NCBI GenBank assembly: GCA_031273885.1 | Contig: JAISRA010000088.1 | Coordinates: forward strand, 1-10,947 | Length of the DNA: 10,947 nucleotides | Direction of reading: 5' to 3' | Origin: Endomicrobium sp. | GTDB lineage: Bacteria > Elusimicrobiota > Endomicrobiia > Endomicrobiales > Endomicrobiaceae | In this document: in pieces, positions 1 to 10,947 of the stretch | Layout: every line of letters starts with the position of its first letter | Position numbering within the stretch: position 1 is the stretch's first letter | The notes under the pieces: model-generated | Told to the model about the DNA's origin: nothing | Databases searched by the model: none | The model's input: the letters and a program-made list of their open reading frames with translations, nothing else | Made by a program: the position numbers and the translations under genes

Positions 1-504
1 GCCAATGATTTATTTGAAATTATAGAGAGAGGCGATGTAAAAACCATGTCATTCGGTTTTATTCCCATAAAATGGGTTGACACAGAAAATAACAAATCAA
101 GAACGTTAAAAGAAGTAGCGTTACAAGAGGTCTCATTTGGCGTTCCCTACGCCGCTTATCCCGAGACAGATTCACAAGCTTTTATAAGGAAAAATATAAT
201 GAAAAGAACTATTGACATTGAAAACTTAAATGAACTTCTTGAAAAAGAAACATTGACAGAGGATGAGATTACACAATTACAAGAATTTGTAAGCTCAATT
301 AATGAAATTATTAATAAAAATAAACCTTCTGAACCAAAAGAGGAAGCCGCTAATGAGGAGCAGCGTGAGGACACTCCCAAAGAAAACACTTCTGATGACG
401 TTAAAGAAGATGAACAAAAAGAGGAAGTTAAACAAGAAATTATTAGTTTAATTGATACACTTTTTGAAATTGAAAAAGAAGATAAAGAGGAAACAAATGA
501 ATAA
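1..504 (+). CDS. Prohead protease, HK97 gp4 type, C-terminal part (5' end outside window)
   Basis: The frame is open from base 1 and ends at TAA 502-504, giving 167 residues with no true start in the window. Seen: the fragment begins in the core of the family, with M-S-F-G-F at residues 16-20, which contains the conserved serine of HK97-type prohead proteases. A conserved L-Q-E-V-S...A-A-Y-P block follows at 41-54. Known for the family: this serine protease sits inside the procapsid, cuts the scaffolding domain from the capsid protein, then degrades itself. Residues from about 68 on are not protease core but a very acidic, Glu/Lys-rich helical tail that probably stays inside the procapsid. 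The ATG at 46 falls just before the catalytic serine and is not the gene start. The gene overlaps the capsid gene by 8 bases, which suggests coupled translation. The identity is well supported by the motifs and by the next gene. Confidence 0.9.
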   Translation, partial: ANDLFEIIERGDVKTMSFGFIPIKWVDTENNKSRTLKEVALQEVSFGVPYAAYPETDSQAFIRKNIMKRTIDIENLNELLEKETLTEDEITQLQEFVSSINEIINKNKPSEPKEEAANEEQREDTPKENTSDDVKEDEQKEEVKQEIISLIDTLFEIEKEDKEETNE

Positions 505-1552
505 TTTAGAACAAAAAAAACTGGATGTTGACATTCAGATTCGTAGCTTACAAGAAGATATTGTAAGTGGTAAAATAAAAGCTGATGACGCTAAAAAGAA
601 ATTTGAGGAATTACGCTCACAGAAAAAAGATATTGAGCAACAGATTGCTCTTGCTAAAGCTCCAAAAGATGAAGTACGTTCAACTGCTGATATTCAAAAA
701 GCGTTAATTGAAAAACGTGCTATTACTTTAAGTGGAACTGGCGCAATCAATCAAATTAGAGAACTTGCAAAAGAATTAATGGCAAAAACACCTATACTTG
801 AAAGAGTTAGATATTTTTATGGGCCTAACGCCTCGACTAATATTCCTGTTCTTTCACCGGGTCTTGCTACTCCAGCAGTTGCCGCTGAGGGTGCTACATC
901 TATTGCTGTTGATTCAACCGCTACATTAGCAAGCAAATCAATTACTCCACATGCTTACGTATCAATACTTCCCGTGAGTTTAGAAACAATTACAATGGGA
1001 ACAGTTAATTTTGACAGTGAACTACCTTCTATTTTTGCAGACGCATTCGCACAAGCTTTTCATAGAGGTGTATTAATTGGAAGTGGAACAGGATTAGACT
1101 TTAAAGGCATATTTAATGCTATTCCTTCTACAAATGAAATTGAGTGTGCCGCAACTGGCAATCCAACTATTGCTGACTTAGTTCAGCTTGCCTTAACTGT
1201 GCAGGACTTAACTGATAATGGTGTAATTGTATTAGCTCCTTCAATTTATGCAGGTATTCTTGCTGATACAACTTCTGGCGTTGCTGATGTTTATAAAGAG
1301 GAATTAATCAGAGCTAAAACAATTGAAAATGTAAGGGTTATTTTAACCAGTGCTGCTCCATCAGTATTAACTGCTGGTTCCACGGTTGCCGTTGCTGGCC
1401 GTCTTGACGATTATGGTTTGGGAATGGCTTCTGAAATTGCAATCGAGCCTATTAAAAAAGTTGGTGATACTAATACTTATTTCCAAGCAAGTGTGTTTGC
1501 GAATGGTACTACTATTGTTGACAAGAATTTCTACGGATTAATTACAAAATAA
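497..1552 (+). CDS. Major capsid protein, HK97 fold, with N-terminal delta (scaffold) domain
   Basis: This gene encodes 351 residues. ATG 497 was chosen because GAGG at 487-490 sits 6 bases upstream; the frame runs open further upstream, but only to a TTG inside the protease gene. Residues 1 to about 55 are charged, rich in Lys, Glu and Gln, and read as a coiled coil. This is the delta domain that serves as internal scaffold in HK97-type phages without a separate scaffold gene. A neutral Ala/Gly/Ser/Thr-rich domain follows. It includes an N-terminal arm around 70-85, P-V-L-S-P-G near 120, and a V-A-V-A-G-R-L-D-D-Y-G-L-G segment near 310, typical of phage_capsid family proteins. Cleavage by the upstream protease is expected between about 55 and 75, but the exact site cannot be read. 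The coding region has somewhat more G+C than its neighbours, as is common for very highly expressed capsid genes. Confidence 0.95.
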   Translation: MNNLEQKKLDVDIQIRSLQEDIVSGKIKADDAKKKFEELRSQKKDIEQQIALAKAPKDEVRSTADIQKALIEKRAITLSGTGAINQIRELAKELMAKTPILERVRYFYGPNASTNIPVLSPGLATPAVAAEGATSIAVDSTATLASKSITPHAYVSILPVSLETITMGTVNFDSELPSIFADAFAQAFHRGVLIGSGTGLDFKGIFNAIPSTNEIECAATGNPTIADLVQLALTVQDLTDNGVIVLAPSIYAGILADTTSGVADVYKEELIRAKTIENVRVILTSAAPSVLTAGSTVAVAGRLDDYGLGMASEIAIEPIKKVGDTNTYFQASVFANGTTIVDKNFYGLITK

Positions 1553-1563
1553 TTTTTCACATA

Positions 1564-1597
1564 GGTGGTTGTTCAAATGGATAACCACCCTCTTTTT
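1564..1597 (+). terminator. Intrinsic terminator or attenuator after the capsid gene
   Basis: GGTGGTTGT (1564-1572) pairs with ATAACCACC (1581-1589): nine pairs, one of them G-U, around an 8-base loop. A C-T-C and then a run of five T (1593-1597) follow. The hairpin lies 12 bases after the capsid stop, and the only other content of the gap is the SD of the next gene (AGGGAG, 1598-1603). The T-run is short, so partial termination is most likely. It would let the capsid gene be expressed far above the connector and tail genes, which have no separate promoter that I can see. It may also stabilise the 3' end of the capsid message. Confidence 0.75.
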
Positions 1598-1608
1598 AGG
1601 GAGTTTTA

Positions 1609-2169
1609 ATGTCTTATATTTCTGCTAATGACTTACAAAAATACTCAAATGTTTATAGTGATATTATTCTACAACAGGAATATATAGACGCCGCAGAAAA
1701 TATTGTCAATAACTACCTGGGATACTCTCCGACACTACACGCTTATAATAATATCTTAAACGGAAGAGGAACTCACGAATTACAATTACGTGCTAAACCA
1801 ATACAAGATATTGTACACCTATCAATAGATGGAACTTCAATACCAATAAATGAATTTTATTTTACTAATGATAGTGAGTTCCTTTATTATAATAATTTTT
1901 TTCCAGATGGAACTAAAAATATACAGATAGAATATACTGCTGGCTGGGGTTCAGTAATTGATGACGATACTGTAAATGGTAATTCATTACCAAAAATAAT
2001 TAAGCTAACAGTATTGAGGATTGCTTCATTATTACAAACAGAATCAGATTCTAATATTGGAATAACTTCAAAAAGTTTTGCTGATAGCGGAACAAGAACC
2101 TTTATTAATAATACAGATTATTATAAGTATCTTATTCCTATCTCTCTTTACCGAATTTTGGTGATATGA
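1609..2169 (+). CDS. Head-tail connector (adaptor), HK97 gp6 type
   Basis: This gene encodes 186 residues from ATG 1609, with SD AGGGAG (1598-1603) 5 bases upstream. The N-terminus (S-A-N-D-L-Q-K-Y) and the early helix Q-Q-E-Y-I-D-A-A-E-N-I-V-N-N-Y-L-G-Y are typical of the gp6-like connector family. In that family, bundles of helices form a dodecameric ring under the portal. A beta-rich middle (I-Q-D-I-V-H-L-S-I-D-G) and the Y-T-A-G-W-G segment before a final helix (L-P-K-I-I-K-L-T-V-L-R-I-A-S-L-L) also fit. The position directly after the capsid gene is the usual one. The role is passage of DNA between portal and tail. The C-terminus is rich in Tyr and Ile. The stop overlaps the next start (ATGA-type). 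The connector call is good; the exact subfamily is inferred. Confidence 0.8.
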   Translation: MSYISANDLQKYSNVYSDIILQQEYIDAAENIVNNYLGYSPTLHAYNNILNGRGTHELQLRAKPIQDIVHLSIDGTSIPINEFYFTNDSEFLYYNNFFPDGTKNIQIEYTAGWGSVIDDDTVNGNSLPKIIKLTVLRIASLLQTESDSNIGITSKSFADSGTRTFINNTDYYKYLIPISLYRILVI

Positions 2170-2636
2170 TGCCAGTTAAATTTGAAGCTGATTTAGATTC
2201 TAAACACCTTGAGAATAAATTAAGAATATTTTCATCTGGACTGGGGAATATATTTAATGAGCTATTAAAATCAGTCGGTGATGAAATGGCTGACGAAGCA
2301 AGAAGCAGGGCACCTGTTAGAACTGGTAGATTACGAAACGCAATTAAATTTTTACCATTTGATGGTGGTGGCGCACTAACAACCAGAAAAACTTTAAATA
2401 AATCAAATGTATGGTATGCAAGAATGGTTGAGAGTGGAGCTAATATTAAACCAAAAAAAGGAAAGTATTTAACATTTAAAATAAATGGGGAATGGAAAAA
2501 AGTATCTTCTGTTCAGACCAGACCGAATCCATTTGGGAAAGAAGTATTTAATGAATATTGGAATGGAACAAACTCAAAGGGCTATCAAGAATTGTCAAAA
2601 GCACTTGAGCAAAAAATTAATGAGGAAATATCATGA
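2166..2636 (+). CDS. HK97 gp10-family head-tail joining protein
   Basis: This gene encodes 156 residues from ATG 2166; a second ATG at 2169 is equally possible. The family signature is clear: a helix D-E-M-A-D-E-A-R-S-R (39-48), then A-P-V-R-T-G-R-L-R-N-A-I (49-60). This is the A-P-x-x-T-G-x-L motif of the HK97 gp10-like family. The segment W-Y-A-R-M-V-E-S-G-A, with a conserved glycine, also belongs to the fold, and the C-terminal half ends in a helix. Members sit between the connector and tail terminator genes and are thought to act in head-tail joining or tail completion. The gene overlaps both neighbours by 4 bases (ATGA). The SD before it is weak (GGTGAT), so it probably relies on translation coupling from the connector gene. 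Confidence 0.85.
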   Translation: MMPVKFEADLDSKHLENKLRIFSSGLGNIFNELLKSVGDEMADEARSRAPVRTGRLRNAIKFLPFDGGGALTTRKTLNKSNVWYARMVESGANIKPKKGKYLTFKINGEWKKVSSVQTRPNPFGKEVFNEYWNGTNSKGYQELSKALEQKINEEIS

Positions 2637-3046
2637 ACTTTAAAGAGCAACAGGAAAATCTAATCAATTTTATTACTAATAATTATGAACTACACCCGGA
2701 AATTATTACCGACGTACTCGATTTTGATAAATACAAAAATGATTTTAGTTTATTCGTGGACTTTTCAAGAATTGATTTTCGACAAAGCCTATATGATGAT
2801 GATTGCGGAGATATAGAACACCTATCAATAGTATTTTATCTGGTTCGACGTAATAATACACCAGCTATACTGAATGCTGATATATTAGACGCCGCTTATT
2901 TGCTATATGAATTAATTAAAGAAAAACCCTCATTAGGAATTGCACAAAATACTATTATAGAGAGCATTGACTTTTATAAATATGTGGAAGGAACTAAATA
3001 TCTTGTCTGTAGTGAATTTAATTTGTCATTGGAGATAGAAATATGA
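2633..3046 (+). CDS. Probable tail terminator / tail completion protein
   Basis: This gene encodes 137 residues from ATG 2633, with SD GAGGAA (2622-2627) 5 bases upstream. I do not recognise the family from sequence alone. What can be seen is an N-terminal helix (residues 1-20), an acidic region rich in Asp and Phe (about 28-60), a strand L-S-I-V-F-Y-L-V-R-R, a long helix A-D-I-L-D-A-A-Y-L-L-Y-E-L-I, and terminal strands. This alpha/beta order, the length and the position between a gp10-like gene and the tube gene fit tail terminators (lambda gpU type), which form a ring that ends tube growth and binds the head. The assignment rests mostly on gene order. It is coupled to both neighbours by ATGA overlaps. 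A head-closure (stopper) role is the alternative. Confidence 0.6.
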   Translation: MNFKEQQENLINFITNNYELHPEIITDVLDFDKYKNDFSLFVDFSRIDFRQSLYDDDCGDIEHLSIVFYLVRRNNTPAILNADILDAAYLLYELIKEKPSLGIAQNTIIESIDFYKYVEGTKYLVCSEFNLSLEIEI

Positions 3047-3219
3047 AATTAGGAAAAGGAATTACTGTATTTGCTACAGAGGAAGCGAAAAGAAAATGGG
3101 AAGGTAAAGAACTTCCCCACAAAAAGAAAAAAAGTAGTTGTCCAACTTGTGAAATAAAATTAACAGAGGAACAACCAGAAAATAAAGACTATATAAATAA
3201 GGAGAATAAAATAGAATGA
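3043..3219 (+). CDS. Small lysine-rich CxxC protein (58 aa), function unknown
   Basis: ATG 3043 overlaps the previous stop and TGA 3217-3219 overlaps the next start, both as ATGA. With GGAG at 3031-3034, this strongly supports a real gene despite its size. The protein is hydrophilic. It has an N-terminal M-K-L-G-K-G-I-T-V-F stretch that may form a strand, a basic run H-K-K-K-K (26-30), one C-P-T-C motif (33-36) and an acidic, Asn-rich tail. A single CxxC supplies two metal ligands, so zinc binding would need His26 or a second copy. It lies where some phages carry small head-tail or tail-completion genes. I do not recognise it. It could be a structural minor protein, an assembly factor or a regulator; nothing in it settles which. 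Confidence 0.75.
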   Translation: MKLGKGITVFATEEAKRKWEGKELPHKKKKSSCPTCEIKLTEEQPENKDYINKENKIE

Positions 3220-3884
3220 AAATTACAGGAAGTAAAGCATCTGTTTTTTTAGACAGTTTTGATAATTCAAACGTAGTTATAGGGGACGGAAGTATTGAAA
3301 CTACAGCAAAACATAAATACTTTGTTATTTCCAAAGCCGCAACTAGTTCAATACCAGTACCAGAAGGAACATTTTTTATCGCACCAGCAGGAGTAAGCCA
3401 AATTACTTTAGCAGTTGGCGATAGAGTATTAAAAATTGAACCAGATAGATTTTGTAAAACTACAGCAAGCTTTGAATTCGCAATGGGAAGTGTAGAAGCA
3501 GGTGATGATTGTGACCCAGGTGCTACAATTTCAGATGGTATTTTAACTATATCTGGAAGTTTAGCCGGATTATTTAGGTATGATGACGCAACTCAAGACC
3601 TTGATAATGTTACTGAAATTGTTGTAAATAGATTTTTAGATATTATTGAAGATGATGGGGCCGGAGTTTATACTTTACACAAAAGAAATGATGAACAGAT
3701 TTATCTTTTAACTTTACTTAATTCTGGTGGCGCTGTAGGAACAACTGAAAACTGGTTGTTTGTTCCTATCAATATTACTTCTATGAGTATGAGTTTAGGA
3801 AATACTGACGTACAAAATAAAGATTTAAGTTTTAGCAAGGGCGAAGGACAACCAATTATTTATAAAGTACCTGTATCAGCATAA
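3216..3884 (+). CDS. Major tail tube protein
   Basis: This gene encodes 222 residues from ATG 3216, with SD AAGGAG at 3199-3204 (11-base spacing). It is dominated by beta strands with many Gly, Thr, Ser and Asp and few Lys, as expected for a tube protein that stacks as hexameric rings. Typical points are the opening strand M-K-I-T-G-S-K-A-S-V-F-L, a P-E-G-T-F-F-I-A-P segment (about 48-56), and C-terminal strands that end in S-F-S-K-G-E-G-Q-P. The position, just upstream of the frameshifted chaperone and tape measure genes, is the canonical place for the tube gene in siphoviruses. The identity comes from composition, length and order rather than from a sharp motif. Two cysteines (C80 and C98) are seen; their role is unknown. 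Confidence 0.8.
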   Translation: MKITGSKASVFLDSFDNSNVVIGDGSIETTAKHKYFVISKAATSSIPVPEGTFFIAPAGVSQITLAVGDRVLKIEPDRFCKTTASFEFAMGSVEAGDDCDPGATISDGILTISGSLAGLFRYDDATQDLDNVTEIVVNRFLDIIEDDGAGVYTLHKRNDEQIYLLTLLNSGGAVGTTENWLFVPINITSMSMSLGNTDVQNKDLSFSKGEGQPIIYKVPVSA

Positions 3885-3893
3885 GGATAGCAA

Positions 3894-4337
3894 ATGGCAG
3901 AATTTAAGTCTCTCAGACAAAAAGAAAAGATATATATTTTCAAAGTATTTGATAATGAGAAAAGCGATAATCCCGCTAAAGTAGTATTCCATCGCTTTCC
4001 ATTATCAGATGAATTATTCCCGCTTGCTTCACAAAAAAATGTATTAGAATCTACTTTTGTAAAAGAATTTGATAATACTCCAGAAGCTAAAGAAAAATTG
4101 GTTAGGCATATTATTGACGTAATGATTGATAATATGACAGCAAACAGATTTGATTATATTAATTTTATAAAAGAATGCGTTGACCACTTTGAGAATTTTA
4201 CTAATGATGGTAAGGAAATAGTAACTGTAGATGATTTTTTAACTTTACCACCGGAAGCGGTACAAAAAATAGCGAAGGATTTATATTTTTATTCCAAAAT
4301 AGAAGATGAGTTTACTTTCAATGAAAAAAAAATTTAA
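3894..4337 (+). CDS. Tail assembly chaperone, short form (lambda gpG-like)
   Basis: This gene encodes 147 residues from ATG 3894, with AAGGA at 3883-3887 (6 bases upstream). The protein is acidic and mostly helical, with the phrases K-V-V-F-H-R-F-P-L, T-V-D-D-F-L-T-L-P-P-E-A-V-Q-K-I and a final charged E-F-T-F-N-E-K-K. The gene sits between tube and tape measure, where long-tailed phages encode a pair of chaperones. The short form is made in excess over a frameshift fusion. Both bind the tape measure protein before the tube polymerises on it and are absent from the virion. The last codons run through nine A (4324-4332) and end at TAA 4335-4337, right after the slip site. The sequence itself is not one I recognise; the frameshift and gene order carry the call. 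Confidence 0.82.
   Translation: MAEFKSLRQKEKIYIFKVFDNEKSDNPAKVVFHRFPLSDELFPLASQKNVLESTFVKEFDNTPEAKEKLVRHIIDVMIDNMTANRFDYINFIKECVDHFENFTNDGKEIVTVDDFLTLPPEAVQKIAKDLYFYSKIEDEFTFNEKKI
4325..4331 (+). promoter_or_regulatory. Programmed -1 frameshift site (A AAA AAA) in the tail chaperone gene
   Basis: In the frame of the short form, the codons are GAA AAA AAA ATT TAA. The heptamer A-AAA-AAA therefore lies in perfect X-XXY-YYZ phase, four bases before the stop. The -1 frame has a TGA at 4322-4324 immediately upstream and is then open to TGA 4658-4660. The shift must occur between 4325 and 4334, and only the A-run is there. A weak SD-like purine stretch (4303-4311) lies upstream. I see no strong downstream stem. 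Nine A could also allow RNA polymerase slippage, giving the same product. Confidence 0.88.
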
Positions 4338-4660
4338 AGATAGCTTATAAATTATATTTATTAGGTTATCGACAATTAGAAACAGAAGATGTTCCAACTG
4401 GATATAAAGTTACTTTAAAGAATGACCCATATCCAGTTGAAATATTTAATGAGAAAACAATCCCAGATAATAAAATAGGAAAATATCTTAATTCTGAATT
4501 TTATTATTATCTAAACATATACAAAAATACTAAAACTTTCGGCCTACCCTATCCTACTAGTTGGCTAAATAATCCTCATTGGCTTCTAATCTTAATTCAT
4601 TTATTTGATGATGTAAATATCGAATATGAAAGATATAAAAAAATAAAGGGGCTCCTATGA
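4331..4660 (+). CDS. Tail assembly chaperone, frameshift extension (lambda gpT-like part of gpGT)
   Basis: After a -1 slip at the A-run, translation continues for 109 codons to TGA 4658-4660, giving a fusion of about 255 residues (146 + 109). This extension has no start of its own: its frame is closed by TGA 4322-4324, and no ATG, GTG or TTG follows near the top. It begins N-L-K-I-A-Y-K-L-Y-L-L-G-Y and includes N-S-E-F-Y-Y-Y-L-N-I-Y, L-P-Y-P-T-S-W-L-N-N-P-H-W and a final basic stretch. It is rich in Tyr and aromatic residues, unlike the acidic short form. By analogy with lambda gpGT, the extension would contact tube subunits while the common part holds the tape measure. The tape measure gene starts 27 bases after its stop. 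Confidence 0.85.
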   Translation, partial: NLKIAYKLYLLGYRQLETEDVPTGYKVTLKNDPYPVEIFNEKTIPDNKIGKYLNSEFYYYLNIYKNTKTFGLPYPTSWLNNPHWLLILIHLFDDVNIEYERYKKIKGLL

Positions 4661-4687
4661 TTGACTATATTTATAAAGGATATTTAA

Positions 4688-7198
4688 GTGGCAGATTTAA
4701 CTTTGCGGATAAATGCCGATTATAAAGCGGCTTCCGAAGCTTTCAAAGAATTAGCAAATTCATCAGAATCAACACGGGAAAAAATAGAAAAATTCTCAGC
4801 TGCTTTTGAAGATAAAAAAATAAATTCATTTATTGATAAACAAAAATTATTAGAAGCGTCAATGAAAGGTACCAGAGGGGAAACAGACGCCGCTAAAGCC
4901 GCAAGTAATAATTATCAAAAAGAAATTGAACGTTTAATTCGTTCCGGATTAGACCCAGAATCAGAAGCTATACAAAGATTAGTTTCCGAACAAAATAAAT
5001 TAAAAGATAAAATAAAAGAAGCTACAGAAGTACAACAAGCGCAAGAGCAATTTATGAAAAGCGCCGAAAAAGCGGCATTGGGAATGATAGCTGCTATTGG
5101 AGCTTCTGTTGTAGCGATAGGAGCGGCTACTCAAAAAACTGCTGAGGCAGGCGACCAGTATGCTAAAACAGCAAGAATAATTGGTATGACTGCTGAAACT
5201 TTTCAGGAATTAGATTATGCCGCCAAAATGAGTGGTGTAGATAATTTACAAGGTTCTTTAGAAAGATTAAATAAAACAGTATCGGATGTAAAAAGTGGTA
5301 CGGGAAGTTTAACTAGTTATCTAAAAGATAATGACCAACAATTGTTAAATCAGTTGGAAAATGTAAATTCAAATGAAGAAGCATTTAATTTATTAATGAA
5401 GGCCATTGATAAAGCTCCTGATGAATTTTCACGGGCAGAATTAGCGACAGCGGCGTTTGGAAAGTCTGGACAGCAATTAATTTTGATGGCAAAAAATGGT
5501 TCAGAGGGCATCGCGGAATTAAGAGAAGAAGCAAGAAAATATGGTGTTATATCAAATGAAGCGGCGTTACAATCAGAGGAATACCTTGATGCTCAGGCCC
5601 GATTAAAAGCCGCTTTGACTGGTGTTAGTACAGAATTAACATCAAAATTACTTCCATCACTTACAGATGTAATAAACGGCGTTGCTAATTTTATCGCAAG
5701 TATTGATGATTGGGAAAATAAATTAGAAACTATTGGATACGTTTTGGCTGGTGTAACTGCCGGGCTGATTGCTTTTCTAGTTGTCGCCAAAGGCGCGGCA
5801 ATTATTCATGGTGTCGCAACCGCATTTAAAGCACTGACGGCGGCAATGGCGGCAAATCCTATAGGTGCTATCGCTGTTTTAATTACTGCTGTTTTAATTC
5901 CCGCTTTAATTGCTCTATATAAAAATTGGGATACTGTTCAAACTTATCTACAACAGGGAATAGCAAGAGTCCAATATGCATTCAAATGGTTGGGTAGTGT
6001 AATTGAAGAGGGACTAGTTGTAGCATTTAATACTGTAAAGGCGGCCGGAGCAACACTCATTGATTTTATTTATGGAAATATAATCCGTGGTATTGGAACT
6101 ATGCTTGATGTAATGGGACAACTTCCGGTCGTTGGTGGGCTGTTCCAGGCCGCCGCAGAAAAAGTAAACTTCTTAGGAAACGCTATTGGAAATATCGCCG
6201 AGGAAACAAGACGCTCCAGTGCGGAAGCAATAGCTGCTGCTCACGCCAAACAAGATGCAACACAAGAAGAATTACAAAATACGTTAATATCAATTGATAC
6301 AGAAGCACAGGCTAGAAGGGCGGCTATTGAAGCGCAGAAAAAAGAAAATAATGAAGTTGTCTCAAATACGGAAGAAACACAAACACAAATAACTGAAATA
6401 AAACGCAAGGCACTAGAAGAACAGTTGGAGCAACAAGTTGAACAAATAAAAACCCTACAAGAACGACTATCCGAAATTCCTTTGACCGAAAAACAGATAC
6501 AAGGTCAGCAGATGGAACAATTTACCAGCTTTCTCAATCAGCGAATGAAATTAGAAAGATTAGAAGAAGAAGAAAAAATAGCATGGTTAGAAGAGCAACA
6601 GCAACTATTACTTGAGTCTGAAACAATTTTTGGAGAAGAAAAAATAGCGTTAAATCAGGCTATTAATGACGCAATAAAAGAACAAGATGAAAAATTAAAA
6701 GAATCTCAAAATAAAATACTGGCTGAAAAATTAAAAGCCACATCTACTTTTTTTAAAGGGATTGAAGACTTAGCAGCTCTTGCTTCTGATAAGAGTGAAG
6801 GATTAGCAATTCTTGAAAAATCAATGGCGGCAGCACAAGCAGCAATTAATTCATACTTAGCATTTACAAATGCGTTAGCCACTGTTCCATTTCCGTTTAA
6901 TTATGTAGCTGCTGCTGGTGTACTTGCAAGTGGTATTGCTCAACAAGTTAAGATACTCTCAACTCCGATTCCATCCGCTGAAACAGGTGGTAGGTTTATT
7001 GTCCCCCATAGTGTTGGTTCCGATTCAAGTTTAATGAGAGTTAATTCCGATGAAGAAGTTGAAATAACGCCAAGGGGAATGACCGGGTATAGTGGACAAC
7101 AAAGAATAATTGTCGAAATAGAAAAACAACCTATTTTTGATATTGTCAACGAGGGAATTGGAACTGGCGATATTCACATTATGGCTACAAATTATTAA
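4688..7198 (+). CDS. Tail tape measure protein
   Basis: This gene encodes 836 residues from GTG 4688, chosen because AAAGGA (4675-4680) stands 7 bases upstream and the N-terminus M-A-D-L-T-L-R-I-N-A-D-Y is typical of the family. Seen: a helical N-terminal part; a first hydrophobic stretch near 125-150; the TP901-type core with A-E-L-A-T-A-A-F-G-K-S-G and E-E-A-R-K-Y-G-V-I (about 252-290); a long Ala/Ile/Leu-rich membrane-like region (about 345-412); Glu/Gln coiled coil (about 500-680); and the usual C-terminal block A-A-I-N-S-Y-L-A-F-T-N-A-L-A. The protein fills the tail lumen and sets tail length, with the hydrophobic parts possibly entering the host membrane at DNA injection. At about 0.15 nm per residue, the tail would be roughly 125 nm. 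Lysine is almost always AAA here (about 6 AAG in some 65), unlike the genes from 7886 on. Confidence 0.95.
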   Translation: MADLTLRINADYKAASEAFKELANSSESTREKIEKFSAAFEDKKINSFIDKQKLLEASMKGTRGETDAAKAASNNYQKEIERLIRSGLDPESEAIQRLVSEQNKLKDKIKEATEVQQAQEQFMKSAEKAALGMIAAIGASVVAIGAATQKTAEAGDQYAKTARIIGMTAETFQELDYAAKMSGVDNLQGSLERLNKTVSDVKSGTGSLTSYLKDNDQQLLNQLENVNSNEEAFNLLMKAIDKAPDEFSRAELATAAFGKSGQQLILMAKNGSEGIAELREEARKYGVISNEAALQSEEYLDAQARLKAALTGVSTELTSKLLPSLTDVINGVANFIASIDDWENKLETIGYVLAGVTAGLIAFLVVAKGAAIIHGVATAFKALTAAMAANPIGAIAVLITAVLIPALIALYKNWDTVQTYLQQGIARVQYAFKWLGSVIEEGLVVAFNTVKAAGATLIDFIYGNIIRGIGTMLDVMGQLPVVGGLFQAAAEKVNFLGNAIGNIAEETRRSSAEAIAAAHAKQDATQEELQNTLISIDTEAQARRAAIEAQKKENNEVVSNTEETQTQITEIKRKALEEQLEQQVEQIKTLQERLSEIPLTEKQIQGQQMEQFTSFLNQRMKLERLEEEEKIAWLEEQQQLLLESETIFGEEKIALNQAINDAIKEQDEKLKESQNKILAEKLKATSTFFKGIEDLAALASDKSEGLAILEKSMAAAQAAINSYLAFTNALATVPFPFNYVAAAGVLASGIAQQVKILSTPIPSAETGGRFIVPHSVGSDSSLMRVNSDEEVEITPRGMTGYSGQQRIIVEIEKQPIFDIVNEGIGTGDIHIMATNY

Positions 7199-7211
7199 GG
7201 AGAAAAAAATT
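7197..7211 (+). promoter_or_regulatory. Strong SD followed by a non-canonical ATT start
   Basis: AAGGAG (7197-7202) overlaps the tape measure stop and is followed after six bases by ATT (7209-7211), the first codon of a long frame. ATG, GTG and TTG are all missing at usable distance: the nearest possible starts in frame are TTG codons at 7137, 7143 and 7158, inside the tape measure gene and without an SD. The next in-frame ATG comes far inside the protein. The SD and its spacing therefore point to ATT as the start. A one-base sequence difference (ATG changed to ATT) is the simple alternative. Confidence 0.6.
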
Positions 7212-7886
7212 AATATTTTATTTTTTGACATTTTACAATACTCAGACGCCCCAAAAGAATTAATCAGCCCCTCATTAGCGGATGCCTGTAATAATCCCGC
7301 CGAATTAGATATAGCGTTAAATACGCCTTCTTTTATTAATTCCGTGGGGATTGGTTATACCGATACTGAAAATTTCGTCATTGAATTGACCGATATAAAC
7401 AATAATGTATATCAGGAAAATATATCTTTTTTCGAGAACGGATTATATTTATTACAAAAAAATTATAATAATATAAACACAATTAGGATAATTTTTTCAG
7501 GTTCATACATTGGAAGAATAGCGTTTGGAAAAGCGGTAAATATAAAAACTTCAATTCCTAAAGAACCTACTCTTGTTTCAACAAATAAACCTAGAATAAC
7601 AGTATCAGGACAGGTCATTGAAGGCTTAGGCGGTTATAACTATTGGAGAGTAAGCTTAGATACTCGATATAAAATTGATAATGAAAAAATGAATGAAATA
7701 ATAAAAAGTTTTCCTATATTAAGTCAGGGTTATCCTATGTTTATTTCATTTGAAGATGAACAAGGAAAAATACCCTTTATTAAACGGTTATATTGTAATG
7801 ATACAAAACAACAGGAAATTAGCTTTGAAAGTTCAATAAATAAGGGGCTGTTTAGCCGCAGATGGATATTTGAGGAGCGTTTTTGA
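7209..7886 (+). CDS. Distal tail-type protein (first tail-tip gene after the tape measure)
   Basis: This gene encodes about 225 residues if translation begins at ATT 7209, giving an N-terminus M-N-I-L-F-F-D-I-L-Q. I infer a distal tail (Dit) or lambda gpL-like role, because this is the first gene after the tape measure and it leads into a hub-type gene. Seen: a short N-terminal region; a beta-rich jelly-roll-like part (V-G-I-G-Y-T-D-T-E-N-F-V-I-E-L); the segment Y-I-G-R-I-A-F-G-K-A-V; and a second beta part with G-G-Y-N-Y-W-R-V-S-L-D and G-Y-P-M-F-I-S-F. The order 'strand-rich domain, I-G-R-I-x-x-G, then another beta domain' recurs in tail-tip proteins that link the tube to the baseplate. Lysine is AAA in about 12 of 13 codons, like the upstream genes. 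The stop TGA shares one base with the next ATG. Confidence 0.65.
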   Translation: MNILFFDILQYSDAPKELISPSLADACNNPAELDIALNTPSFINSVGIGYTDTENFVIELTDINNNVYQENISFFENGLYLLQKNYNNINTIRIIFSGSYIGRIAFGKAVNIKTSIPKEPTLVSTNKPRITVSGQVIEGLGGYNYWRVSLDTRYKIDNEKMNEIIKSFPILSQGYPMFISFEDEQGKIPFIKRLYCNDTKQQEISFESSINKGLFSRRWIFEERF

Positions 7887-9538
7887 TGGGTGTTTTATTC
7901 TCCGCTGATTTATCACAAGACGTAGAATTCTTTATATCTACAACTCCTACGGATGTTGATAGAAAATATAATGTCTATGAAGTTTATTTAGGCTCATATC
8001 CAACTGAAAATACATACTGGACAGATTGGGGTGGTTATTATGATAATCCTATTGTAAATAAGATTGAGTTATATATTGATGGCCGATTCCTGGTCAGTGT
8101 GTATTCATTAGAAGATTGTTGTGAGACGCCTTATAGTATCTATGACGAACCGAGTGCCGGAACTGTGTATTTCAATTTACCGAAACATCCTTGGTTGTAT
8201 GACGATATTGGAATAAGTACAAGGAAGTCTATATCATTCTTATCAGGCCCTAAGAATCCGAATAATCCGTCAGATAATAAATTCAATAATGAAAGCTGGC
8301 CTGTCAGACTAGATGTGCCAAAGTTCACGGTAAAATTATCAGATGTCATAAATGGACTAACAAAATATTCCACGTTTGATTTCACACTTTACAATAATGA
8401 TGGGTACTTTGATGACCTGGAAATAACAAATTTCTTCAATTCACCATCATATATTAAGAAGACATGGAAAGAGAATCCACAAGCCGGGGACTTTATTCCT
8501 ATAAGATATGGCATGGTTGAAACAATAAAAATTGATGATAAGACAATGACCGTTTCATGCGCCGATATATTTAGGACATTAGAGGAACCTGTATCCAGAG
8601 TCGTGAGTGACTTATTCCCTGTCGCGATAGAGAATCAAGATGAAGAATTACCAATCATATATGGAACAGTCAGAATACCTCTCATAAAGATTACTGATAC
8701 TATGTATGTTGCGGGTGAGAATATTACTTCTGTGAGTGATGTTTATGACAAAGACGGTAATCCGGCCTCATACACATTCTTAAATGGAATAATAACATCA
8801 AACATAGAAATTGAATCCGCCCTGGCCACAGGCAATACGAATAATAGAATCGGGCAAATTGTGGTTGACTTAATCATTTCAAAAACAAACATTACTTACA
8901 TCAATTCATTTTGGGATGTGAATGAAACTAATGAATATGTAAATAATTCTCCGGCAATTAATATTGCTTTTATCGGAGGCTCTGTAAGGGAAGCAGTTAA
9001 AGACGCTCTGATGTCCGACATGGTATTCTTGATACAAAAGAATGATGGTAGGTTTACTCTAAGACAGTGGGGAAAGCAATATAATAATTTTATAATTGAT
9101 AAGAAGCTTATAACTAAGTTTCCCTCAAAGCATTACGCTGACGCTCAAAAGAATTACTTCTCAAGCTGTTTGATTAAGTATAATTTTGATTATGAGAGTG
9201 ACGAATATGAGAACGTATTACTTTTTAAAGACTATGAAGAGAATGCCGAAACATTATATAACAAAGTAGTTAAAAAAGAATTTGAAACAAATTTGACAAG
9301 CAGTGCAGATGCATTAAGTCTGGCAGTAAATTTGTCTGACAGGTTTACTACATTACGGGAAACAATACAAGTAGCTGTAGGTTATAATACCAGCGAGATA
9401 AATTTACTTGATACTATTGAGATTGAGTTGAATATAAATAAAAGAATATTCTCAAGAGTCAATAAATGGATAGTGAAAGAGATTGACCCAGCTCAAGATG
9501 TACTTACACTTGAGCCATTTATTGAAAATACTAATTAA
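7886..9538 (+). CDS. Tail-tip / baseplate hub-type protein
   Basis: This gene encodes 550 residues from ATG 7886, chosen over TTG 7883 because GAGGAG (7872-7877) lies 8 bases upstream. The protein is rich in beta strands, Asn, Tyr and Asp. Recognisable hub-like points are A-D-I-F-R-T-L-E-E-P-V-S after a strand pair; L-P-I-I-Y-G-T-V-R-I-P-L-I-K-I (about 255-270); a helix G-G-S-V-R-E-A-V-K-D-A-L-M; and a closing domain with I-N-L-L-D-T-I-E-I-E-L and a final I-D-P-A-Q-D-V-L-T-L-E strand. Such proteins form the trimer that closes the tube and carries the receptor-binding apparatus. I cannot name the family with certainty and see no peptidoglycan hydrolase motif. Lysine AAG rises to roughly half of codons here, from under 10% in the previous two genes, suggesting a different origin. 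The stop lies directly against the stop of the opposing gene at 9539. Confidence 0.65.
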   Translation: MGVLFSADLSQDVEFFISTTPTDVDRKYNVYEVYLGSYPTENTYWTDWGGYYDNPIVNKIELYIDGRFLVSVYSLEDCCETPYSIYDEPSAGTVYFNLPKHPWLYDDIGISTRKSISFLSGPKNPNNPSDNKFNNESWPVRLDVPKFTVKLSDVINGLTKYSTFDFTLYNNDGYFDDLEITNFFNSPSYIKKTWKENPQAGDFIPIRYGMVETIKIDDKTMTVSCADIFRTLEEPVSRVVSDLFPVAIENQDEELPIIYGTVRIPLIKITDTMYVAGENITSVSDVYDKDGNPASYTFLNGIITSNIEIESALATGNTNNRIGQIVVDLIISKTNITYINSFWDVNETNEYVNNSPAINIAFIGGSVREAVKDALMSDMVFLIQKNDGRFTLRQWGKQYNNFIIDKKLITKFPSKHYADAQKNYFSSCLIKYNFDYESDEYENVLLFKDYEENAETLYNKVVKKEFETNLTSSADALSLAVNLSDRFTTLRETIQVAVGYNTSEINLLDTIEIELNINKRIFSRVNKWIVKEIDPAQDVLTLEPFIENTN

Positions 9539-10051
9539 CTATTTTTTCTGAATAACTATATCTATAGCCTTATTATCAGATGTCACTGCTCTCAAGTATA
9601 AAGGAAATTCTTCATTTTTCTCAAGATAAATGTTGTGTAAGTTAGTCCATGTAGTATTATAATAATTCCCAACATCATTTATATTACCATGAGGATTTGA
9701 ACTTGTCCCATATTCTCTATATATTTCATTCTTATTTCCATCTTGAACAATAAACAACCAATCCGTTGTATAAGCAGTTCCCCTAGTCCAAGCCATTATT
9801 CTGATAGAGATATAGCCAAATTCTGGAATTCCTTTATATCTAGGCTCTCTCATTTCAGTTGCCGCTTTTTTATCTTCTTTTGCTCTTAAAAATTCAGGGC
9901 TGTAATAAATCGCTAGTGCCTGGTTCTCACCAGGATTTTTTGGAATGATTTTATAAGCGGGGTCCTCTTGCGTAAACCCGGCAGAATGCGAAACAAGACT
10001 GGCGCAAGACAGAGACGCAAAACATAATAATACAATAATAATCTTTTTCAT
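9539..10051 (-). CDS. Predicted lipoprotein, phage accessory (moron) gene
   Basis: This gene encodes 170 residues on the minus strand from ATG at 10051, with SD AAGGAG (10064-10059) 7 bases away and its own promoter. The N-terminus M-K-K-I-I-I-V-L-L-C-F-A-S-L-S-C is a lipoprotein signal: two lysines, a hydrophobic core and a lipobox ending Ser-Cys, so Cys16 should be lipidated. Ser at -1 with Leu at -2 is a relaxed box, more like those of spirochaetes. The mature part has Y-I-S-I-R-I-M-A-W-T-R-G, D-W-L-F-I-V-Q-D-G and a Y-Y-N-T-T-W-T-N-L-H stretch, which suggests a beta-sandwich; no enzyme motif is seen. Known phage lipoproteins block superinfection, mask receptors or act as lysis spanins; here superinfection exclusion or envelope modification is the best guess. 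It opposes the tail operon, which argues for expression outside late infection, for example from a prophage. Confidence 0.85.
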   Translation of the reverse strand: MKKIIIVLLCFASLSCASLVSHSAGFTQEDPAYKIIPKNPGENQALAIYYSPEFLRAKEDKKAATEMREPRYKGIPEFGYISIRIMAWTRGTAYTTDWLFIVQDGNKNEIYREYGTSSNPHGNINDVGNYYNTTWTNLHNIYLEKNEEFPLYLRAVTSDNKAIDIVIQKK

Positions 10052-10069
10052 TTTTTTTCTCCTTGATTA

Positions 10070-10099
10070 ATTATACTTCTAATAATAATAATTAGTCAA
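10070..10099 (-). promoter_or_regulatory. Sigma-70-type promoter of the lipoprotein gene
   Basis: On the minus strand TTGACT (10099-10094) and a perfect TATAAT (10075-10070) are separated by 18 bases. The gene's SD and ATG follow at once, so the predicted transcript starts near 10064-10063, at the first bases of the SD, leaving a leader of only about 12-13 bases. This is the clearest promoter in the window and lies in the 64-base gap between two divergent genes. The spacer is a run of TAA/TTA triplets. Confidence 0.75.
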
Positions 10100-10109
10100 G
10101 ACTATATAA
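10100..10109 (+). repeat. Direct repeat copy 1 (GACTATATAA), before the lipase gene
   Basis: The ten bases GACTATATAA occur here and, identically, at 10820-10829. After both copies comes a short A/T stretch and then TATGAA, the ATG being the start of the following gene. The two copies bracket the lipase gene almost exactly, so recombination between them would remove it and place its upstream region before the next gene. At this base composition a 10-base match could be chance; the matching position is what makes it notable. Confidence 0.5.
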
Positions 10110-10115
10110 AATAAT

Positions 10116-10829
10116 ATGAAAACATATTTTTATAAGCAGAATCCATTAAAAGAGCAAAAATACATTATGTATGAAGACTGGAAACCATCCGCTGAGCACT
10201 ATACTTTTATAACACAACCACCCCGGGACTGGATACATGATGATAAGACAGGGCTAGACTATTTATACTGGGCGGAATTTCAAAACGAAATCAAAATAGC
10301 GTATGTATTATTCAAAGGTTCATCAGAAACCAAAGACTGGGTAAAAGACTTTGAGTTTTTTCCCAAAAGACTTAATTTGTTTCCAGGCACTCATATTAGA
10401 GTGCATTGCGGAATTGGTGAGCAGTATCTTGCCGGACGAAATCAGATACTTGATTTTCTATACCAGGAAAAACCAAGTGTCATTCTTATCAGCGGATATA
10501 GTTTAGGCGGCGGACTAACTCAAATAGCGGCAGAAGACATAACCTGGCATTTCAGAGAAACAACTATCAGCGCTATCGCCTATGAGTCTCCGCGAGTGTG
10601 GTTTATGTCTGCTAGGCTTGTAAAACCATTTATAGAGAATAAGCTCACTCTAATCATGACCTGGTGGGACCCTGTAGTACATTTACCTTTATTTATATTT
10701 GGATTTAAGTTTGTGGGAAAGAAGATATGGATTGGTAAGCTAAATCGTTTGATTCCGGTACAACACTTATGGAATGAAGTAGTTAAGAACTTGATGGAAA
10801 AGTTTAGTGTCTCGGGATTGACTATATAA
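10116..10829 (+). CDS. Class 3 lipase-like serine hydrolase
   Basis: This gene encodes 237 residues from ATG 10116. The class 3 (fungal-type) lipase order is clear: F-K-G-S at 66-69 with D-W at 74-75 (the usual F-R-G-T...D-W); V-H-C-G-I at 96-100 (usual V-H-x-G-F); nucleophile elbow G-Y-S-L-G at 127-131 with Ser129; E-S-P-R-V at 157-161 (usual G-x-P-R-V-G); Asp185 in W-D-P-V-V-H-L-P; and His217 near the end. All three catalytic residues are therefore present, and an active acyl hydrolase on lipids or phospholipids is likely. There is no signal peptide, so it would act in the cytoplasm, be released at lysis, or be carried in the virion. No SD is seen before the start; TATAAA ends 5 bases upstream. 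AAG is again common for lysine. A second ATG at 10167 would leave every motif intact. Confidence 0.85.
   Translation: MKTYFYKQNPLKEQKYIMYEDWKPSAEHYTFITQPPRDWIHDDKTGLDYLYWAEFQNEIKIAYVLFKGSSETKDWVKDFEFFPKRLNLFPGTHIRVHCGIGEQYLAGRNQILDFLYQEKPSVILISGYSLGGGLTQIAAEDITWHFRETTISAIAYESPRVWFMSARLVKPFIENKLTLIMTWWDPVVHLPLFIFGFKFVGKKIWIGKLNRLIPVQHLWNEVVKNLMEKFSVSGLTI
10820..10829 (+). repeat. Direct repeat copy 2 (GACTATATAA), before the next tail gene
   Basis: This is the second copy of the ten-base repeat, lying over the last codons and stop of the lipase gene and 3 bases before the next start. Like the first copy it replaces a recognisable SD. It could be a shared expression signal or the trace of an insertion. 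Confidence 0.5.
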
Positions 10830-10832
10830 TAT

Positions 10833-10947
10833 ATGAATGAATTACAAAAACTGCCGAATCCTACCAATATACCTGAAGCTGTAAGTACAGGCTATCAAAG
10901 ACAAAATACTAACCTTCTTTGTTTACAAACTGGTATTGATACTGCTA
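10833..10947 (+). CDS. Start of a further + strand gene, probably tail tip (3' end outside window)
   Basis: The frame is open from ATG 10833 to the end of the window, 38 codons with no stop. It begins M-N-E-L-Q-K-L-P-N-P-T-N-I-P-E-A-V. It starts 3 bases after the lipase stop, without an obvious SD, so it may be translated by coupling. Too little is visible to name it. Its place after the hub-type gene suggests another tail-tip or receptor-binding component, but it could equally belong to the accessory insertion. Confidence 0.55.
   Translation, partial: MNELQKLPNPTNIPEAVSTGYQRQNTNLLCLQTGIDTA

What the first reader, a model, noticed from the sequence alone, without database searches (positions are those of the whole stretch)
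1..10947. Complete absence of GATC from the whole window
I went through the ATC trinucleotides on the + strand (about 140 by hand): they are preceded by A, T or C, never by G. GATC is a palindrome, so this covers both strands. At about one third G+C some 25-35 sites would be expected by chance. Other 4-base palindromes (CATG, GTAC, CTAG, GGCC, GCGC, AGCT, ACGT, TCGA) and GATTC/GAATC are present, so the loss is specific. The trace shows in codons: Asp is mostly GAT, yet before a codon starting with C it is always GAC (every Asp-Pro here, at about 3512, 4424, 4963, 9486 and 10669). This points to long selection by a GATC-cutting enzyme (Sau3AI/MboI/DpnII type or a methyl-dependent DpnI type) in its hosts. 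The accessory lipoprotein and lipase genes are also free of GATC, so they share that history or came from similar DNA.
Basis: seen in the sequence. Interest (0 to 1): 0.8.

Follow-up and report, generated by a model that had tools for sequence, protein, structure and literature searches.

The report
Spirochaete phage fragment stripped of GATC
This piece of a virus that probably infects termite-gut spirochaete bacteria has lost every copy of the four-letter DNA word GATC, most likely because bacterial enzymes that cut at GATC destroyed viruses that kept it; several related viruses show the same loss.

Summary
The 10,947-base window has 0 GATC; 23.0 are expected from trinucleotides and 20.0 ± 3.4 from synonymous-codon shuffles, minimum 8 in 2,000. 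GATC is the only absent tetramer of 256. The window is an HK97-type phage contig in an Endomicrobium bin, but its capsid relatives point to termite-gut Treponema. Sampled bin contigs keep GATC: 215 against 288 expected. In 32 non-redundant related phage loci GATC is eliminated (observed/expected ≤0.1) in 12, with at least 8 changes on the capsid tree; no other 4-base palindrome exceeds 3 loci. A related Treponema prophage has 0 GATC in 28.8 kb (46.5 expected); the adjoining host DNA has 82 in 28.3 kb. Selection by GATC-cutting restriction enzymes in the host community is the best explanation. Full-length DpnII systems occur in 3 of 195 genomes of that Treponema family, and Dam-type methylase–endonuclease pairs in others; MutH/Sau3AI in 0 of 195. 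No particular enzyme is shown: the prophage's own host has no detected GATC system, and seven MAG-linked phage loci show no agreement with host systems. It is a strong, recurrent case of a known phenomenon, unusual in an integrating phage.

The parts
1..10947 (.). whole window: no GATC on either strand (palindrome)
   Evidence: 0 observed, 23.0 expected; 0 zeros in 1,000 Markov simulations
46..504 (+). 3' part of a prohead protease-like gene
   Evidence: Pfam PF04586 22.3 bits (cut-off 21), PHROG 3244
497..1552 (+). HK97-type major capsid protein; the marker used for relatives and tree (2.6 GATC expected in shuffles, 0 found)
   Evidence: Pfam PF05065, PHROG 10; expectation
1609..2169 (+). head-tail adaptor
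   Evidence: PHROG 442, E 4.8e-16
2166..2636 (+). HK97 gp10-like tail completion/neck protein
   Evidence: Pfam PF04883, PHROG 5
2633..3046 (+). ORF in the head-tail module, no family match
3216..3884 (+). ORF in the position of a tail tube gene, no family match (2.9 GATC expected, 0 found)
   Evidence: role by position only
3894..4337 (+). ORF in the position of a tail assembly chaperone, no family match
   Evidence: role by position only
4688..7198 (+). tape measure protein (5.8 GATC expected, 0 found)
   Evidence: PHROG 8462, E 2e-39; expectation
7137..7886 (+). ORF of the tail module, no family match
7883..9538 (+). ORF of the tail module, no family match (3.2 GATC expected, 0 found)
9539..10051 (-). 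lipoprotein-like ORF (signal with Cys, by eye), no family match; 0.8 GATC expected
10116..10829 (+). class 3 lipase-like ORF; 1.3 GATC expected
   Evidence: Pfam PF01764 47.4 bits; expectation

Best explanation
The window is part of a tailed phage of termite-gut bacteria, most likely of Treponema and of a group that can integrate, whose GATC sites have all been removed by selection from GATC-cutting Type II restriction enzymes met in its hosts. Infecting DNA with an unmethylated GATC would be cut; changes that destroy a site without changing the protein (GAT to GAC before C, ATC to ATT or ATA after G, no TCN after xGA) are kept until no site is left. Shown: the total, GATC-specific, phage-specific loss at every codon phase, and its recurrence in relatives. 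Inferred: the cutting step, the host range, the integration of this particular phage and the identity of the enzyme. Candidates present in the likely host family are DpnII-type systems and a Dam/DpnM-type methylase paired with a DUF6996-DUF6997-DUF7226 endonuclease.
For: 0 GATC against 23.0 or 20.0 +/- 3.4, only absent tetramer of 256. GATC kept in 18 unmasked sampled contigs of the bin (215/288.0). Related prophage in Treponema contig G064:C6: 0 GATC in 28,764 bases (46.5 expected) up to and including a serine recombinase gene, first GATC at 28,922, then 82 in 28,309 bases of flank (98.9 expected). In 32 non-redundant phage loci, 12 with observed/expected <=0.1 and at least 8 changes on the capsid tree; among 16 palindromes GATC 12 of 31 testable loci, the next (CGCG) 3 of 23. 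Sister pair L035/L037: 14 against 0; none of 10 aligned L035 sites kept at a mean tetramer identity of 0.396. In 195 genomes of the host family: DpnII over cut-off in 4, three full length with an adjacent methylase gene; DUF6997 endonuclease over cut-off in 12, of which 6 have a Dam-like gene directly beside them.
Against: No enzyme is tied to this phage. G064, which carries the GATC-free prophage, has no match for Dam, DpnII, DUF6997 or MutH. G068 has the intact Dam-type/DUF6997 pair, yet its phage locus L068 keeps 16 of 64 GATC. Across seven MAG-linked phage loci there is no agreement between host genes and depletion. The site of the DUF6997 endonuclease is not known. GATC-cutter genes are rare in the family (3 full-length DpnII in 195). 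Published passages say elimination is mainly a trait of non-temperate phages (PMC6286503), which fits poorly with an integrating group. The actual host of the window is unknown.
Confidence: 0.75

Rival explanations
1. GATC is lost because of Dam-linked effects other than cutting: methylated GATC in phage DNA would disturb replication, packaging or gene control, or (as proposed for enterobacterial phages) steer MutH mismatch repair.
For: Dam-family methylase is over cut-off in 75 of 195 genomes of the host family, and in 18 of the 20 Dam loci fetched no DUF6997 endonuclease lies beside it. PMC12570018 (passages) proposes regulatory interference for a prophage with fewer GATC; PMC5014478 (passages) calls the cause in phiX174 unclear.
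Against: MutH 0 of 195 and 0 of 16 handles, control positive in E. coli. Complete elimination over 28.8 kb is more than the milder bias (1.6-fold) of the regulatory case. G064 has no Dam match.
Confidence: 0.12
2. Crossfire: hosts differ in GATC methylation, some cutting unmethylated GATC (DpnII type) and some cutting methylated GATC (DpnI type), so only a phage with no GATC at all passes everywhere.
For: Methylation capacity is mixed in the family: Dam over cut-off in 75 of 195 and DpnII in 4 of 195. PMC4687349 (passages) discusses such a mixture in S. pneumoniae. It would explain loss to zero even in integrating phages.
Against: DpnI 0 of 195, though the control rang nowhere, so absence is not shown.
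Confidence: 0.08
3. An AlwI-type enzyme (site GGATC, recalled) of the Endomicrobium bin, contig C17, selected the phage.
For: The bin carries an AlwI-family endonuclease (PF09491, 73.6 bits) next to a double D12 methylase of 718 aa.
Against: Sites without GGATC/GATCC are lost too: 14.1 expected, 0 found, P about 8e-7. The bin is probably not the host.
Confidence: 0.02
4. Chance, base composition or codon usage.
For: The window is short and A+T-rich.
Against: 0 zeros in 1,000 Markov simulations; minimum 8 in 2,000 synonymous shuffles; zero-GATC relatives range from 28 to 45% G+C.
Confidence: 0.01

Closest known systems
Recognition-site avoidance/elimination in phages (PMC6286503, passages seen)
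   Same: Specific under-representation of a Type II site, down to none; GATC is among the avoided sites there (CB < 1 in all 46 phages whose hosts encode the corresponding enzyme).
   Different: That study finds elimination mainly in non-temperate phages; a relative of the window is integrated, with a serine recombinase. Host enzyme not identified here.
GATC-free coliphage phiX174 (PMC5014478, passages seen)
   Same: No GATC where about 20 are expected.
   Different: phiX174 infects Dam+ MutH+ E. coli; MutH has no match in 195 genomes of the Treponema family. Much longer DNA here (28.8 kb in the relative).
DpnII/DpnM and DpnI systems of Streptococcus pneumoniae
   Same: DpnII-family endonuclease genes (PF04556) and DpnM-like methylase genes (best solved relative 2dpm, 256 bits) occur in the Treponema family.
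   Different: The three full-length DpnII genes have a PF01555 methylase as neighbour; the DpnM-like gene is found beside a DUF6997 endonuclease in 6 genomes or without one. DpnI was not found, without a working control.

Membership tests
Restriction-site elimination in phages | Site count far below expectation for its own composition and codons | tested here: met
   0 against 23.0 and 20.0 +/- 3.4
Restriction-site elimination in phages | Specific to one restriction site among similar words | tested here: met
   Only absent tetramer of 256; 12 of 31 loci against at most 3 of 23 for any other palindrome. TGCA is also reduced in the window.
Restriction-site elimination in phages | Not shared by host DNA | tested here: met
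   Prophage 0/46.5, host flank 82/98.9 in the relative; bin contigs 215/288.0, but the bin is probably not the host
Restriction-site elimination in phages | Cognate enzyme in the host or host population | tested here: inconclusive
   Candidates in the family, none in the prophage's own host G064, no agreement over seven MAG-linked loci
Restriction-site elimination in phages | Loss of sites gives resistance to cutting | not testable with these tools
   needs phage and host in culture
MutH/Dam mismatch-repair driven GATC avoidance | Host encodes MutH | tested here: not met
   0 of 195 genomes, control positive in E. coli; 0 of 16 handles
DpnI-type methyl-dependent selection | Host population encodes DpnI | tested here: inconclusive
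   0 of 195, but the control rang nowhere
AlwI-type (GGATC) selection | Only GGATC/GATCC sites lost | tested here: not met
   14.1 other GATC sites expected, 0 present; the AlwI site itself is recalled

The most novel reading that the evidence does not exclude
GATC restriction is a dominant, recurring pressure on integrating phages across termite-gut spirochaetes, strong enough to strip whole prophages of the site again and again. The main cutter is a little-studied endonuclease family (DUF6996-DUF6997-DUF7226) paired with Dam/DpnM-type methylases rather than DpnII.
Probability: 0.15. Interest if true: 0.55.

Novelty: new member of a known kind. Interest (0 to 1): 0.4.

Why it matters
Phage sequence can record which restriction enzymes a microbial community uses, even where hosts cannot be cultured. 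Here the record points to GATC cutting among termite-gut spirochaetes. It shows complete elimination in a phage group that integrates, a class in which elimination is reported to be rarer, and the trait flips between close relatives, which would make the speed of its gain and loss measurable.

Tried and rejected
AlwI-type selection (bin contig C17): rejected as sole cause, since GATC sites outside GGATC/GATCC are lost too. MutH/Sau3AI: no match. DpnI: no match, but the control rang nowhere, so left open. Phage-borne methylase: D12 in 1 of 22 virus records searched (G057/L044, itself low in GATC at 1 of 39), so not a general explanation. Close phage genomes: the capsid alone gave no relative in IMG/VR, the tape measure protein none in GTDB contigs; INPHARED had no capsid match and 18 records with partial tape-measure matches, all under 60% identity. 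The closest capsids (P0002 90%, P0003 87% identity) are JGI metagenome proteins whose DNA I could not fetch, so GATC in the nearest relatives is untested. No correlation between host GATC genes and phage depletion across seven MAG-linked loci; told as against the reading.

Rows dropped before the tree and the palindrome table (32 kept of 45 sequences): L032 (capsid identical to L030), L038 and L066 (same contig stretch, capsid match broken over two frames), L052-L059 and L061 (near-identical to L050), L069 (29-residue edge match). An earlier tree with 43 rows, distorted by the off-frame L066 row, also gave 8 changes.

Papers: 'DUF6997' is in no paper of the library. GATC + Treponema + prophage: 3 papers in the listing, none on this topic by title and abstract start. 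In the listings (GATC, Treponema, restriction; 15 of 44 shown; termite, Treponema, phage; 12 of 50 shown; phage with phrases for GATC absence; 9 shown) I saw no report of GATC loss in Treponema phages. One search (restriction site avoidance, phage, GATC) gave 1 paper, on Streptococcus thermophilus, not opened. Searches gave no lead that I used.
Full report
WHAT IS THERE. The window is a whole contig (G000:C133) of a 915,914-base draft bin in 143 contigs. It carries the end of a prohead protease-like gene, an HK97-type capsid, a head-tail adaptor, a gp10-like protein and a tape measure protein, with ORFs between and after them that match no family, then a reversed lipoprotein-like ORF (by eye; no family match) and a class 3 lipase-like ORF. 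The bin is an Endomicrobium: of the best 120 relatives of its glutamyl-tRNA synthetase, those with an organism name are nearly all Endomicrobium, Endomicrobiia or Elusimicrobiota, one Cytophagales. The phage is probably not that organism's. The capsid is in 0 of 39 other relatives of the bin, 23 of them of the same genus. The five organism names among its best 120 protein relatives are all Treponema, 7 of 8 GTDB loci are Treponema MAGs, and 7 of 195 genomes of that Treponema family encode it. An Endomicrobium host is not excluded.

THE OBSERVATION. GATC is absent. Expected are 33.6 from composition and 23.0 from trinucleotides, and it is the only absent tetramer of 256. 1,000 Markov-2 simulations had a minimum of 10. 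Permuting synonymous codons of 12 coding sequences, which keeps proteins and codon usage, gives 20.0 +/- 3.4 with a minimum of 8 in 2,000. The loss is at all codon phases: Asp before C is GAC 10 of 10, Ile after G is ATC 0 of 39, Ser after xGA is TCN 0 of 7. The zero in the lipoprotein-like and lipase genes alone is not evidence, since 0.8 and 1.3 sites are expected.

IS IT GENOME-WIDE? No. Of 20 sampled bin contigs (of 143), 18 are unmasked: 129,175 bases with 215 GATC against 288.0 expected, at least 4 in each; the longest GATC-free run is 4,055 bases. The cleanest test is a relative. The prophage in Treponema contig G064:C6 has 0 GATC in 28,764 bases (46.5 expected), from the contig's start up to and including a serine recombinase gene at 26,821-28,764. 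The host side has 82 in 28,309 bases (98.9 expected), and the first GATC is at 28,922. Seven other stretches of that genome hold 301 against 402.3. So there the trait belongs to the phage and stops at its edge. The left end of that prophage is not in the contig.

IS IT RECURRENT? Of 45 sequences (window and loci L026-L069), 11 have no GATC at all. Of 32 non-redundant ones, 12 have observed/expected of 0.1 or less (L067 only just, 4 of 40.9), and the capsid tree needs at least 8 changes of state. 10 of its 29 inner branches are open, so the number of changes is approximate. The sister pair L035/L037 (100/100 support) has 14 and 0; none of the 10 aligned GATC of L035 is kept in L037, where the mean tetramer identity is 0.396. 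Among 16 four-base palindromes, GATC is eliminated in 12 of 31 testable loci, CGCG in 3 of 23, GGCC in 2 of 26, CTAG in 1 of 26, GTAC in 1 of 29, and the other 11 in none. Others are near normal: L026 15 of 18.7, L034 42 of 51.3, L036 38 of 47.0, L043 58 of 44.3, L060 49 of 52.5.

WHO CUTS? In 195 genomes of the prophage host's GTDB family, Dam-family methylase is over cut-off in 75, DpnII endonuclease in 4 (0 of 39 in the host's own genus), three of them full length with an adjacent PF01555 methylase gene, and DUF6997 endonuclease in 12. In 6 of these 12 a Dam-like gene lies directly beside it: both genes are long and intact in G068, G234 and G235, the endonuclease is shorter in G164 and split over two ORFs in G172 and G166. 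The G068 endonuclease matches PADLOC's REase_II profile PDLC03513 at 306 bits and no solved structure; its partner's best solved relative is DpnM at 256 bits. GATC is therefore its likely but unproven site. Of the 20 Dam loci fetched, 2 have that endonuclease beside them; the others may be orphan methylases, judged only by eye from neighbouring ORFs. MutH/Sau3AI: 0 of 195, control positive in E. coli. DpnI: 0 of 195, control nowhere positive.

AGAINST. G064, whose prophage has no GATC, has no match for Dam, DpnII, DUF6997 or MutH. G068 has the intact pair, yet its phage locus L068 keeps 16 of 64.1. G066 has a Dam over cut-off and its phage locus keeps 33 of 48.2. G067 (phage 4 of 40.9) has only a Dam-like match under the cut-off, and its own sampled DNA is low in GATC (0.31-0.45). 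Over the seven MAG-linked loci there is no agreement between host genes and depletion. The drafts are incomplete and few families were searched, so the selecting enzyme may be another one or may have acted in earlier hosts. The direct cause is inferred.

MECHANISM. Most likely (0.75), unmethylated GATC in incoming phage DNA is cut by Type II enzymes in part of the host community; phages that have lost all sites grow everywhere, and integration does not bring the sites back. Dam-linked effects without cutting (0.12) and crossfire between methyl-dependent and methyl-blocked cutters (0.08) remain open. The bin's AlwI-family system cannot explain it alone: 14.1 sites outside GGATC/GATCC are expected and absent.

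KNOWN OR NEW. Site elimination is a known phage strategy, said to be commoner in non-temperate phages (PMC6286503, passages). GATC absence is known from phiX174 (PMC5014478, passages). GATC avoidance in populations of mixed methylation is discussed in PMC4687349 (passages). What is unusual is complete elimination in a phage group with an integrated member, the repeated change of state within one group, and the termite-gut spirochaete setting. I saw no report of it in the listings. I file it as a new member of a known kind.

Noticed in passing
window 4322-4660: The ORF 3894-4337 ends in a run of A, and an open -1 frame (4325-4660) continues from it: a likely programmed frameshift of a tail assembly chaperone.
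   Followed up: partly
window 1-10947: TGCA is also low: 13 in the genes against 33.2 in 300 synonymous shuffles and 13 against 26.3 by trinucleotides; no cause sought.
   Followed up: no
window 10116-10829: The lipase-like ORF at the end of the tail module has only 4 relatives at E <= 0.001 besides itself, 45-50% identical, among 593 candidates.
   Followed up: partly
L088-L090 (G064:C6): The GATC-free prophage also has no GGCC (35.5 expected), and its host flank has only 12 of 84.7, which suggests a GGCC pressure shared by phage and host.
   Followed up: no
L023 (G000:C17): The Endomicrobium bin carries a 718-aa double D12 methylase followed by an AlwI-family endonuclease gene.
   Followed up: partly
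L044/L074: A phage record with 1 GATC of 39 expected carries its own D12-type methylase ORF (296 aa); its specificity was not tested.
   Followed up: partly
L098-L102 (G067): Treponema MAG G067 is itself low in GATC on all 5 sampled contigs (observed/expected 0.31-0.45), unlike the stretches of G064 and G068.
   Followed up: no
L114 and L118 (G172, G166): DUF6997 endonuclease genes beside a Dam-type methylase are split over two ORFs, as if the cutter decays while the methylase stays.
   Followed up: no
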